From the NCBI RefSeq assembly GCF_017313765.1, contig NZ_JAFLNC010000004.1, forward strand, positions 186,001-250,000: a stretch of 64,000 nt of DNA, given 5' to 3'. Position numbers and translations under genes: made by a program. Each line of letters opens with the position of its first letter. The stretch's first letter is position 1. The DNA is from Sneathiella sedimenti (GTDB taxonomy: Bacteria > Pseudomonadota > Alphaproteobacteria > Sneathiellales > Sneathiellaceae). Below the pieces are notes generated by a model. It worked only from the letters and a program-made list of their open reading frames with translations, had not been told where the DNA came from and did no database searches. Below are positions 58,843-62,579 of the stretch, piece after piece.

Positions 58843-59295
58843 GTGAGTGAGGTCAGCTTTTATCACCTGCAATCGGACCCGATCGAGCGGGCGCTGCCGC
58901 GTCTGCTCGAGAAGGTGACGGAGCGCGGCTTTCGCGTGATTGTGCGCGGGGTGACGGAGGAACGGCTCGACATCCTCGATGAGAGCCTCTGGTCCTACCG
59001 GAGCGAGAGTTTCCTGCCCCATGCGCGCGACGAGTCCGGCCTCGATCCCGCGGCGCAACCGATCCTGCTCACCCTTGCGGGCGAGGGGAATGCGAACGGC
59101 GCCAATGTCCTCGTCCTGACGGAGGACGCCGCGGCCGATGACCTCGCAAGCTTCGAGCGCTGCCTCTATATGTTCGACGGTAATGACGAGACGGCGCTCA
59201 CCGCCGCCCGGACCCGCTGGAAAGCCTTCAAGGAGCAGGATATTGCGGTCAGCTACTATCAGCAGACCGAGGCGGGCTGGGAAAAGAAGGCGTGA
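58843..59295 (+). CDS. holC: DNA polymerase III chi subunit
   Basis: 150 residues. It opens SEVSFYHLQSDPIERALPRLLEK and contains LDILDESLWSYRSESFLPHAR, matching the HolC family. The subunit links the clamp loader to single-strand-binding protein. GTG start. pepA-holC is a conserved pair in proteobacteria. Confidence 0.95.
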   Translation: MSEVSFYHLQSDPIERALPRLLEKVTERGFRVIVRGVTEERLDILDESLWSYRSESFLPHARDESGLDPAAQPILLTLAGEGNANGANVLVLTEDAAADDLASFERCLYMFDGNDETALTAARTRWKAFKEQDIAVSYYQQTEAGWEKKA

Positions 59296-59341
59296 GGGGG
59301 TTTTTGCGCGGCGCGCGCCCCGCCGCTTCGGCGACGAGCGG

Positions 59342-59485
59342 ATGGACGTGATCCGCCACCGCGACCGGCAATTCTTCCACTCCCACCATTTCAAGCACGA
59401 GCTGATCCTCTTCGCCTTCTTCCTCGTCGCCTTGTATGCCTATTTCGAGCTTATCTCCTCACTGGGGATTGAAGGGCAGATTTAG
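59342..59485 (+). CDS. Possible small membrane protein
   Basis: 47 residues, one hydrophobic segment (LILFAFFLVALYAYFELI) after a basic and His-rich N-terminus (MDVIRHRDRQFFHSHHFK). No strong ribosome site; it follows holC by 46 bases and may be co-transcribed. Codon pattern is host-like, which supports coding, but the short length leaves doubt. Confidence 0.45.
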   Translation: MDVIRHRDRQFFHSHHFKHELILFAFFLVALYAYFELISSLGIEGQI

Positions 59486-59704
59486 GGGGATTTACGGGGG
59501 GTAAGTCGGCGCTTTAGCTGCTAGCGCTAGATGGACAAGGGTAGAGGATGACATTCGACAATTATAGATAGGAATAAAAAATTCTGGCTGCAATTTTCAA
59601 TTAATTTCCTTCAAGCCATTGATATTTAATCTAAATTAATGTTTACTTCATCTCCGAGTGTCGAGAACAAAAGGTGTCCCAACACACCACTCCATACAAA
59701 CACC

Positions 59705-59733
59705 TTGCATCACTCACCACATTATTGTATAAA
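59705..59733 (+). promoter_or_regulatory. Promoter of the islet gene
   Basis: TTGCAT (59705-59710), exactly 17 bases, then TATAAA (59728-59733). Both are close to the sigma-70 consensus, with AGGATGAGG ahead of the ATG at 59766. This is one of the best-looking promoters in the window. Confidence 0.65.
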
Positions 59734-59765
59734 ATGGCGAATCATTGGAAGGATGAGGTGGTGTC

Positions 59766-60278
59766 ATGGGTAACAGCGATGTACTTCTAACTCGCAAAAA
59801 TGTCGAGGATATGAAGCAAGAGTTGGATGAGGTGAATAGAATGCGTGACCAGTTAGCTAAACGCGCAGATATTCTCACAATGCGCCTTGAGGCGGCCAAA
59901 CTCTTTCTTGGCGATGATTTAGTCGAAGAGGTAACTTTAACGGACATTCCGGCCCCCACGCTAGCTGAGGATATTGAGCCTCTCCCTGATGCTATTAGAC
60001 GTGTTCTAAAGGAGAAGGGGGGGTTTCTTACGCATATGCAAATTCGTGAGTTGATATCTCGTGACCCTCTCCAAAAGAAGCGTTTTAAGGATAATCCGAA
60101 TTATTATTATACTGCCATTAAACGGCTGAAGGACCGCCATGAAATCATCCAGAGTGGTCGCCGCTATAGTATTGCAACAAAAGAGACGCCAGACGAGCAA
60201 TCGTCTAGCGCCTCAAAAGTCACCGGCGAATTGCTAGATTCGCTTGTCGATAGCCTAGATATCAAAGACCTGCTCTAG
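59766..60278 (+). CDS. Low-GC orphan: coiled coil plus winged-helix-like C-terminus
   Basis: 170 residues; no family recognised with confidence. Residues 10-50 form a probable coiled coil (VEDMKQELDEVNRMRDQLA). Residues 70-137 (LPDAIRRVLKEKGGFLTHMQ, then NYYYTAIKRLKDRHEIIQ and GRRYSI) look like a small winged-helix domain of the HARE-HTH kind. The C-terminus is acidic and Ser/Leu-rich. GC content of a line I counted is near 43%, far below neighbours. AGGATGAGG lies 7 bases before the ATG, so it is well expressed in principle. Probably acquired. A hairpin-rich region with a terminator follows. Confidence 0.7.
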   Translation: MGNSDVLLTRKNVEDMKQELDEVNRMRDQLAKRADILTMRLEAAKLFLGDDLVEEVTLTDIPAPTLAEDIEPLPDAIRRVLKEKGGFLTHMQIRELISRDPLQKKRFKDNPNYYYTAIKRLKDRHEIIQSGRRYSIATKETPDEQSSSASKVTGELLDSLVDSLDIKDLL

Positions 60279-60300
60279 GCTGAACTTCCTGTAACACTCA

Positions 60301-60500
60301 GGCCAGACTCGCGGCTGGTAGTCCCCGAGAGATTGGGGGTGGAGCATGGCAATACCATAGTTCCACTACCATTCCCGCCCATACAAGATTCGCGAACTTG
60401 TATGGGTGGCAGTGCCCGTTTGGGGCACAGGGCGACGGTAGGATCCACCGTCATCCACCACATCTTGACGGGGCGCACATAGCGTCCCGTCATCTTTTTG
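60301..60500 (+). ncRNA. Candidate structured RNA: seven hairpins ending in a terminator
   Basis: Consecutive stems on paper are: CCAG/CTGG (60303/60315); CCCC/GGGG (60323/60335); GTGGA/TCCAC enclosing ATGG/CCAT (60339-60366); a 13-bp stem with one G-U (60375-60387/60397-60409) whose loop TTCGCGAA is self-complementary; GTGCCC/GGGCAC (60412/60423); GACGGT/ACCGTC (60434/60447); and the terminator stem. The density far exceeds chance and no protein frame is convincing. It may be a 3' UTR of the upstream gene or a separate small RNA. Extents are approximate. Confidence 0.55.
60466..60499 (+). terminator. Intrinsic terminator closing the islet
   Basis: GACGGGGCGC (60467-60476) pairs with GCGTCCCGTC (60482-60491) with a single G-U, around loop ACATA. 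One further T-A pair extends it, and ATCTTTTTG follows. It suits termination of + strand transcription from the promoter at 59705. Confidence 0.8.
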
Positions 60501-60590
60501 TTATCATGATTTTCTTATATTTGCAAGTGAAAAGGTCGAAATCTTAAGTGATTCCAATAGCTTGCCGAAATCTCAGGAAGCCGCTAGTTT

Positions 60591-60671
60591 TTAACGCCCA
60601 TCGTCAATGTCAACGCTATCGATAAGGAGCCGCTCCAGAAACTCGCGAACAGCTTCGCCGGGGTCCGCCTA
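60591..60671 (-). pseudogene. Possible C-terminal remnant of a lost gene
   Basis: A 26-codon open stretch between two in-frame stops, TAG at 60671-60669 and TAA at 60593-60591, on the - strand. It would read DPGEAVREFLERLLIDSVDIDDG-like sequence, with host-like composition and amphipathic helix character. It has no start codon. It may be the tail of a gene deleted when the islet arrived; too short to identify. Confidence 0.2.
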
Positions 60672-60686
60672 ACCCTCGGCGAGTAG

Positions 60687-62579
60687 TTACGCCGCGCCTT
60701 CGGCTTCAAGTTCTTCCGTTAGCGCGAGCCATTTTTCCTCGGTTTGGGCGAGGTCCGCTTTCAGGCGGCCGATCTGGTCGGTGAGTTTGGCCTGATGCGC
60801 CGGGCCCTTGTCGTAGGTGGCGGGGTCGGCGAGTTCGGCTTCGAGCTTTTTCTGCTGGGCGGTCAGGTCCTGCATCGTCTTTTCGAGGCGGGTGACTTCT
60901 TTTCGCTTCGGGGCGAGGGCGGCACGGGCAGCGGCGCGCGCCTTTCGCGCCTCTTTCCCGGATAGCTTCGGCTGCCCCGGCGCCGTGTCATTCTTGCGGC
61001 CGTTGCTGCCACCGCGCGCGGCGTCGAGCACTTCTTTCTTGTAATCCTCGATATCGCCATCATAGGCATGCACGCCGCCATCCTTCACCAGCCAGAGCCG
61101 GTCGGCGACGAGGGAGACGAGATGCGGGTCATGGCTGATGAGCAGGACCGCGCCCTCATATTCATTGAGGCCCTGGATCAGCGCCTCCCGACTGTCAACG
61201 TCGAGATGGTTGGTCGGCTCGTCAAGGATAAGCAGATGCGGTTTTTCCTCCGCAATCAGGCAAAAGTTGAGCCGCGCCTTTTCGCCGCCCGAAAGCTGCT
61301 TTACCGCGGTGTCGGTCTTCTGACGCGAAAACCCGAACTGCCCGAGACGGGCCCGCACCTTTGACTCTTGCGCATTCTCCATCTTCGCGGCGAGATGCTG
61401 GTAGGCGGTCTCATTCTCATGCATCTCGTCAAGCTGATGCTGCGCGAAGAAGCCGATTTTGAGCTTGTTCGATTTCTGCATTTTCCCGGTTTCGGGTTGC
61501 AGCCTGTTGGCGAGCAGCTTGGCGAAGGTCGACTTGCCGTTGCCGTTGGAACCAAGGAGCGCGATCCGGTCGTCCATGTCGATGCGCAGGTCGAGCCCGC
61601 GCAGCACGGGCTTGCCTGGCGCATAGCCGACGGCGCAATGCTCCATCGTGATGATGGGGGAGGAAAGCGGCTCCGGCGCGTGGAAGGTCAGGCTCGCCGT
61701 ATGTTCATCGACAATGCCGACGACGGGCTTCATCTTCTCCAGCATCTTCACGCGGCTCTGCGCCTGACGTGCCTTGGATGCCTTGGCGCGGAAGCGATCG
61801 ACAAAGCTCTGCAGATGCTTGCGCTGGGTTTCCTGCTTGCGGGCCATGCCGGCCAGAAGCTCCATCTGCTCGCGGCGGGTCTTCTCGAAGAAATCGTAGT
61901 TGCCGGTGTATTTGACGAGCTTCATCTGGTCGAGATGGGCGATTTCCGTCACCACGTTATTCAGCAGGTCCTTGTCATGGCTGATGATGACGAGGGTGCG
62001 CTGGTAATTGCGGAGGAAATTCTCCAGCCACAGGGTCGCCTCGAGATCGAGATAGTTGCTCGGCTCATCGAGGAGGAGCAGGTCGGGTTCCGCAAACAGC
62101 GTGCCCGCGAGCGCGACACGTGTGCGCCAGCCGCCGGAGAAGGAGGAGCAGGAGCGCTGCTGCGCCTCATGGTCGAAACCAAGACCGGCGAGGATTTTCG
62201 CGGCCCGTGCCTCCGCCGTGTGGGCGTCGATATCGGCCAGGCGGGTGTGGATTTCGGCGATGCGCATGCCGTCGGTGGCGGTCTCCGCCTCCTTCATCAG
62301 GCGCGCCCGCTCGACATCGGCGGAGAGTACGGCCTCGATCAGGCTTTCCGGTCCGCCCGGAGCCTCCTGCGGCAGGACACCCAGGCGCGCACCGTTGCGC
62401 AGCTCGATGGTGCCGCCGTCGGGATGAATTTCCCCGGTGATCATCTTGAGCAGCGTCGACTTGCCGGTGCCGTTGCGCCCGATCAGGCCAAATTTATGCC
62501 CGACCGGAATATGCAGCGAGGCATTTTCCAGCAGTGTACGTCCGGCGATGCGGTATGTCAGATCCTTGATTTGAAGCAT
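60687..62579 (-). CDS. ABC-F family ATPase (Uup/YheS-like)
   Basis: 630 residues. Two ABC domains on one chain without membrane segments: Walker A GLIGRNGTGKSTLLKM and LLGSNGNGKSTFAKL, signatures SSFSGGWRTRVALAG and LSGGEKARLNFCLI, Walker B LLLLDEPSNYLDL and LLILDEPTNHLDV. A C-terminal Ala/Lys/Glu-rich coiled coil (about 540-630) follows. ABC-F proteins act on stalled ribosomes or confer antibiotic resistance; this layout resembles housekeeping Uup/YheS. The start at 62579 (MLQIKDLTYRIAG) is chosen over a longer frame. Divergent from the ArsR gene. Confidence 0.93.
   Translation of the reverse strand: MLQIKDLTYRIAGRTLLENASLHIPVGHKFGLIGRNGTGKSTLLKMITGEIHPDGGTIELRNGARLGVLPQEAPGGPESLIEAVLSADVERARLMKEAETATDGMRIAEIHTRLADIDAHTAEARAAKILAGLGFDHEAQQRSCSSFSGGWRTRVALAGTLFAEPDLLLLDEPSNYLDLEATLWLENFLRNYQRTLVIISHDKDLLNNVVTEIAHLDQMKLVKYTGNYDFFEKTRREQMELLAGMARKQETQRKHLQSFVDRFRAKASKARQAQSRVKMLEKMKPVVGIVDEHTASLTFHAPEPLSSPIITMEHCAVGYAPGKPVLRGLDLRIDMDDRIALLGSNGNGKSTFAKLLANRLQPETGKMQKSNKLKIGFFAQHQLDEMHENETAYQHLAAKMENAQESKVRARLGQFGFSRQKTDTAVKQLSGGEKARLNFCLIAEEKPHLLILDEPTNHLDVDSREALIQGLNEYEGAVLLISHDPHLVSLVADRLWLVKDGGVHAYDGDIEDYKKEVLDAARGGSNGRKNDTAPGQPKLSGKEARKARAAARAALAPKRKEVTRLEKTMQDLTAQQKKLEAELADPATYDKGPAHQAKLTDQIGRLKADLAQTEEKWLALTEELEAEGAA

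What the first reader, a model, noticed from the sequence alone, without database searches (positions are those of the whole stretch)
60301..60500. Array of seven hairpins with terminator after a low-GC orphan gene
About 190 bases fold on paper into seven consecutive stems, including a 13-bp stem with a self-complementary loop and a final intrinsic terminator. The sequence does not match riboswitch or sRNA patterns I know. With the promoter at 59705 and the orphan gene it forms a self-contained unit: promoter, protein, structured RNA, terminator. It could be a protein-RNA module such as a small defence or toxin-antitoxin-like system, or a structured 3' UTR. The function is entirely inference.
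Basis: partly seen in the sequence, partly recalled or inferred. Interest (0 to 1): 0.68.

Follow-up and report, generated by a model that had tools for sequence, protein, structure and literature searches.

The report
Mobile-gene RNA with micro-ORF
Behind a small DNA-binding-type gene lies a strongly folded RNA region that looks like a diverged member of an apparently undescribed RNA group, which travels with related genes in transposons and phages of alphaproteobacteria and carries a tiny start-stop reading frame.

Summary
The hairpin array is real: 60320-60496 folds 7.2 s.d. better than shuffles and gave the lowest scores in a scan of the 64 kb. Rfam has no match. The 'orphan' gene encodes a coiled-coil/winged-helix protein with rare, scattered relatives. 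The two relatives with enough sequence (G087, G664) also have hairpin-rich DNA downstream, with a core shared with the window: GGTGG..C, ATG, few codons, stop (window 60338-60360). Searching for the core alone gave six more copies in viral contigs; one (L140) has a gene of the same protein family directly upstream. G087, G664 and L140 share the order small basic gene - wHTH gene - RNA - IS1-like transposase; inverted repeats bound two of them. Pairs covary modestly in four copies. The window copy has no transposase or repeats, is diverged, and models of the other copies do not find it; its membership rests on protein, position and core. Most likely a translation-sensing regulatory RNA; the function is inferred.

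The parts
59766..60278 (+). gene of a 170-aa coiled-coil + winged-helix (cc-wHTH) protein
   Evidence: ORF; relatives G087 E 2.1e-7, G664 by profile E 2.8e-24, L075
60183..60214 (.). 14-bp hairpin inside the gene; G087 also has a hairpin near the end of its gene (seen by eye)
   Evidence: terminator scan; sequence of G087
60301..60318 (+). weak first stem
   Evidence: in the minimum-energy fold, not in the centroid
60323..60338 (+). hairpin just before the Shine-Dalgarno-like sequence
60338..60354 (+). core GGTGGAGCATGGCAATA, 3 mismatches to the consensus of the other copies
   Evidence: only such site in 64 kb on both strands; 12 of 20000 region shuffles do as well
60346..60360 (+). micro-ORF ATG GCA ATA CCA TAG
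   Evidence: sequence; translation not tested
60339..60366 (+). stem that encloses most of the Shine-Dalgarno-like sequence and the ATG
60375..60409 (+). 13-bp hairpin with palindromic loop
60412..60428 (+). 6-bp hairpin
60430..60456 (+). hairpin
60466..60500 (+). intrinsic terminator

Best explanation
Shown: 60301-60500 is a strongly structured, terminator-ended region behind a coiled-coil/winged-helix gene, and related genes elsewhere are followed by hairpin-rich DNA with a shared core (GGTGG..CATG, few codons, stop). Inferred: the window holds a diverged, transposase-less copy of this passenger gene + RNA pair, which elsewhere sits in transposons with IS1-like transposases and in phage contigs. 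The RNA is probably the 3' part of the wHTH message and works as a translation-sensing regulator. Ribosomes that start and stop at the micro-ORF, partly hidden in a stem, would change the folding of the flanking hairpins and so set how much expression goes past it; in the full elements what lies past it is the transposase gene. In the window no gene follows at once on the same strand, so there it would act as structured 3' end and terminator of the wHTH gene, or be a relic.
For: Structure far above chance. Core behind both other family genes with enough sequence, G087 and G664, and from the core back to a family gene in L140 (profile E 3.9e-16; E 3e-18 to G664). Window core: only site within 3 mismatches in 64 kb; 12 of 20000 shuffles. 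In nine of nine copies the ATG is followed by a stop after 2-4 codons, with TAG, TAA and TGA used. First hairpin: 3 of 8 pairs changed on both sides in four copies; 7 of 49 pairs between L098 and L112. Order small basic gene - wHTH - RNA - transposase in G087, G664, L140, with PF03400 above cut-off for the G664 and G087 transposases and inverted repeats of 20 and 17 bases around these two.
Against: Models of the other copies do not find the window copy (R2: 2.7 bits, E 8.3 without filters; not; R3: no hit in the window), and R2 misses L079. The window protein and L140's show no significant pairwise match (E 0.08). L140 and L127 are not significantly structured by the 200-base test (z -0.63, -1.40), nor is L079 over 221 bases (z -1.22). 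Early stops also occur in 7 of 39 non-members. Control tests on four copies are modest (10-14 of 500 shuffles reach the values; the second hairpin is only 68% paired in that alignment). No transcript or translation data; in the window nothing follows for it to regulate.
Confidence: 0.4

Rival explanations
1. Ordinary structured 3' UTR and terminator of a horizontally acquired gene; the core match in the window is chance or a relic without function.
For: The array ends in a terminator and no gene follows on the strand before the opposite-strand ABC-F gene; covariance and sequence models do not find the window copy.
Against: Core unique in 64 kb, lies behind a gene whose two testable relatives have the same core there; z -7.2 is more than one terminator needs.
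Confidence: 0.28
2. Minigene-type translation inhibitor, like the bar minigenes of phage lambda (recalled): a strong start followed by a few codons and a stop sheds peptidyl-tRNA and drains a rare tRNA.
For: Seven of nine copies have an AUA codon third; early peptidyl-tRNA drop-off is an established process (passages of PMC10192219).
Against: L127 (MSS) and L140 (MT) lack AUA; five of the other copies were found with patterns that fixed AATA or were chosen with it.
Confidence: 0.13
3. Scaffold or guide RNA of the transposon, bound by the wHTH protein or the transposase.
For: RNA lies between the wHTH gene and the transposase gene in G087, G664, L140.
Against: Long hairpins vary freely in sequence; no variable guide tested; other copies lie in contigs where I saw no such transposase next to them (L079, L089, L098).
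Confidence: 0.07
4. Small defence or toxin-antitoxin module.
For: Self-contained gene plus RNA in a variable islet; two relatives carry genes that look like RHS toxin tips at the same site (by eye).
Against: No PADLOC match for the window or G087 protein; no RNA repeats; related copies stand beside a transposase gene.
Confidence: 0.06

Closest known systems
Leader-peptide / micro-ORF attenuators (erm-type and similar; recalled)
   Same: Shine-Dalgarno, short reading frame and alternative hairpins in one RNA, next to a gene on the same strand in the full elements
   Different: Only 2-4 codons, lies behind a wHTH gene, and in the window no gene follows on the strand
Lambda bar minigenes (recalled)
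   Same: ATG, one or a few codons often with ATA, stop, after a good Shine-Dalgarno
   Different: Large hairpin context, passenger protein, ATA not in all copies
Transposon-borne structured RNAs: omega RNA of IS200/IS605, bridge RNA of IS110 (recalled)
   Same: Structured RNA carried in a transposon near the transposase gene
   Different: IS1-like transposase, contains a micro-ORF, no guide function known; no Rfam match
IS1/IS1595-type elements with passenger genes (recalled)
   Same: DDE_Tnp_IS1 domain in G664 and G087, inverted repeats, passenger genes
   Different: The window copy has no transposase and no such repeats

Membership tests
cc-wHTH-linked micro-ORF RNA group (defined in this report) | family cc-wHTH gene directly upstream | tested here: met
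   window gene related to G087 (E 2.1e-7) and to the G664 profile
cc-wHTH-linked micro-ORF RNA group (defined in this report) | core GGTGG..CATG with stop after 2-4 codons | tested here: met
   60338-60360, 3 mismatches, 12 of 20000 shuffles
cc-wHTH-linked micro-ORF RNA group (defined in this report) | recognised by a model of the other copies | tested here: not met
   R2 E 8.3, R3 no hit
cc-wHTH-linked micro-ORF RNA group (defined in this report) | covariation that includes the window copy | not testable with these tools
   too diverged to align; searches for intermediates exhausted the caps
Any Rfam family | match at gathering score | tested here: not met
   window: only three tRNAs; six other loci: none
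IS1-type transposon | transposase and terminal inverted repeats around the islet | tested here: not met
   no transposase ORF in 59296-60690; no match to the G087 repeat within 5 of 17
Toxin-antitoxin or defence system | match to a known component | tested here: not met
   PADLOC none for the window and G087 proteins; toxicity not testable
Leader-peptide attenuator | regulated gene directly downstream on the same strand | tested here: not met
   window: none before the opposite-strand ABC-F gene; full elements: transposase
Lambda bar-type minigene | peptidyl-tRNA drop-off at an ATA codon | not testable with these tools
   ATA in 7 of 9 copies

The most novel reading that the evidence does not exclude
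A new class of transposon- and phage-borne structured RNA in alphaproteobacteria that works with a dedicated winged-helix protein and uses a 2-4 codon start-stop frame as a ribosome switch or ribosome sink to control the mobile element; the window holds a copy that has shed its transposase and kept the protein-RNA pair.
Probability: 0.25. Interest if true: 0.82.

Novelty: new variant of a known kind. Interest (0 to 1): 0.6.

Why it matters
If the group is real, it adds a structured RNA with a conserved micro-ORF to the inventory of IS1-like mobile elements, and gives a testable case of a start-stop reading frame as a control device. It also gives a family context to genes that annotation would call orphan.

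Tried and rejected
Relatives of the protein: patterns in genome contigs (400 stretches, none confirmed) and viral contigs (none); tblastn in plasmids and phages with the window and G087 proteins (none) and in plasmids with the G664 protein (none). Of 60 relatives only the window's own genome matched. Other hits (G037; a second place in G000 with two TGA beside a glnB-like gene) and (two FliJ-like, one GyrA-like by eye; G137 not read) were taken as unrelated. L075's contig ends about 107 bases after the stop; its stretch there has z -2.7, and its genome (G873) has no core within one mismatch, so it neither supports nor excludes the link.

Relatives of the RNA: blastn none in plasmids and phages for the window, none in plasmids for G664, L079, L112, none in phages for L112. 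A one-sequence model found only the window convincingly (9 of 385 genomes at E up to 1, the best other hit E 0.03, those loci not inspected; 1 of 24). Core pattern in 185 genomes of the class: 4 with a match, two being the window and G087, two in long frames. In 14 chosen genomes with one mismatch allowed: 7 with a match, exact ones in G000, G087 and G664, the rest taken as chance. The L098 protein found only itself.

Other ideas: repeats (no direct repeats; no long copies in the genus); protein structure (mean pLDDT 55; no PDB match); PDB by sequence (best E 0.77); weak Pfam, NCBIfam and PHROGs matches below any cut-off. The 72-aa antisense ORF at 60275-60493 was not searched. The proteins before the core in L079 and L098 look like coiled coil plus wHTH to the eye; L079 has no detectable homology to the family, L098 was not compared. 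The IS1595-like transposases near the core in L112 and L127, the IS1-like one in L140 and the small basic genes are named by eye, without a family search.

Statistics to read with care: the Fisher value 2.3e-5 relates low z to early stop among 31 distinct sites, after ten repeats of the same 60 bases were dropped; z at most -2.1 in 8 sites, 7 of them members. In one search the rule fails: members L127 and L140 have unremarkable z, two non-members have z near -4, and 6 of 15 non-members have an early stop. L079, L089, L098 and L112 were called members after I had seen both features; L127 and L140 on extended similarity.

Literature: six searches (I saw listings and abstract beginnings) and passages of PMC10192219 and PMC6429828 showed nothing that describes this RNA. 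Lambda bar, erm leaders, omega and bridge RNAs and IS1595 passenger genes are recalled.

Full report
Observation. The array at 60301-60500 is there and is more than chance. The fold of 60279-60510 has seven stems (six in the centroid), z -5.7; the core 60320-60496 has z -7.2; in 854 windows across the 64 kb, two of them placed on the array by me, the array gives the four lowest values. The terminator is confirmed; a promoter at 59705 is not. Rfam has no match.

Surroundings. The islet (about 59500-60687) lies between a holC-like gene and an ABC-F gene, named by eye. Ten relatives of the genus were fetched across this site; all ten have both flanking genes, and between them 64 to 4062 bases of other content, with partial copies of the holC 3' end in three (G001, G003, G016) and genes that look like RHS tips in two. 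Apart from chance-level matches the RNA was not found in the 23 other genomes of the genus, nor the gene in 59 other relatives. A single acquisition by this genome is the simplest reading.

The gene has relatives. Among 385 genomes of the class one convincing relative was found (G087, E 2.1e-7); a DNA pattern for its conserved peptide gave L075; the profile of three gave G664 (E 2.8e-24; 2 of 299 genomes of the phylum matched, the window's own included). In 205 genomes of G664's genus only G664 matched. They share an N-terminal helical stretch and a C-terminal N-Y-[FY]-Y-T-A-x-x-R-L-K motif. Naming it a winged helix is my reading of the sequence; the structure model was poor.

RNA behind the relatives. 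Behind the G087 gene lies a hairpin-rich stretch (z -4.7), behind the G664 gene too (z -4.1); L075 is cut off by its contig end. By eye the window, G087 and G664 share a core: GGTGG, two bases, C, ATG, a few codons, stop. I then searched for the core alone. Viral contigs gave L079, L089, L098 and L112, and, with a pattern that left the codons free, L127 and L140. I called these six members for hairpin context or extended similarity; the remaining hits I took as chance, most of them in longer frames. L098 and L112 are 73% identical over 209 aligned bases. L140 carries a gene of the same protein family directly upstream and an IS1-like transposase gene downstream, the order of G087 and G664. Inverted repeats of 17 and 20 bases bound the G087 and G664 elements; the ends in L140 are not settled. 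So the pair was reached from both sides: from protein to RNA in both other testable relatives, and from RNA to protein in L140. L079 and L098 have other proteins upstream, without detectable homology for L079 and not compared for L098.

Structure and frame. In L098, L112, L140 and L127 the first hairpin keeps pairing with changes on both sides (3 of 8 pairs; 7 of 49 pairs between L098 and L112 alone); the second hairpin is kept with different arms when read by hand but is 68% paired in the automatic alignment. In nine copies the frame reads MAIP (window), MTI (G664), MII (G087), MIIA, MIIE, MII, MTI, MSS and MT. Against this, early stops also occur in 7 of 39 non-members, and several copies were found with patterns that fixed the codons.

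How secure is the window copy. Its core is the only site within 3 mismatches of the other copies' consensus in 64 kb on both strands, and 12 of 20000 shuffles of the region do as well. But the models of the other copies do not find it; they find L089 (E 2e-5) and G087 (E 0.002), G664 only weakly (E 0.23) and L079 not at all. I therefore call the window a probable, diverged relative.

Mechanism. The Shine-Dalgarno-like sequence and the ATG lie in a stem (60339-60366) beside another (60323-60338), and a terminator ends the array. In the full elements the next gene on the strand is the transposase. A translation-sensing regulator between passenger operon and transposase is the reading I prefer; it is inferred. 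In the window no gene follows at once on the strand, so there the RNA may only end and stabilise the wHTH message. Minigene, scaffold and defence readings remain as rivals.

Novelty. None of the library searches or paper searches used here showed this RNA, but most subscription papers and the transposon databases were not available, so it may be known under a name I could not search.

Noticed in passing
window 58843-60687; L039, L040, L041: The 3' end of the holC-like gene is an insertion hot spot in the genus, with diverged partial copies of holC (about 67-79% identical pieces) downstream in three genomes.
   Followed up: partly
L038 2722-3246; L039 3146-3658 (read in the orientation of holC): Genes that look like RHS toxin tips, with further RHS-core-like remnants at the 3' edge of the islet (by eye).
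   Followed up: no
window 59341-59485: A 48-aa frame that matches the C-terminal end of a 200-aa membrane protein complete in G018: a remnant left beside the islet.
   Followed up: no
L112 5527-5970; L098 13097-13558: Two similar coiled-coil plus wHTH-like genes of another subtype near the RNA copies, one directly after an IS1595-like transposase (by eye).
   Followed up: no
L127 2354-2428: A tRNA-like gene with an odd two-base anticodon call lies shortly after the RNA on the same strand.
   Followed up: no
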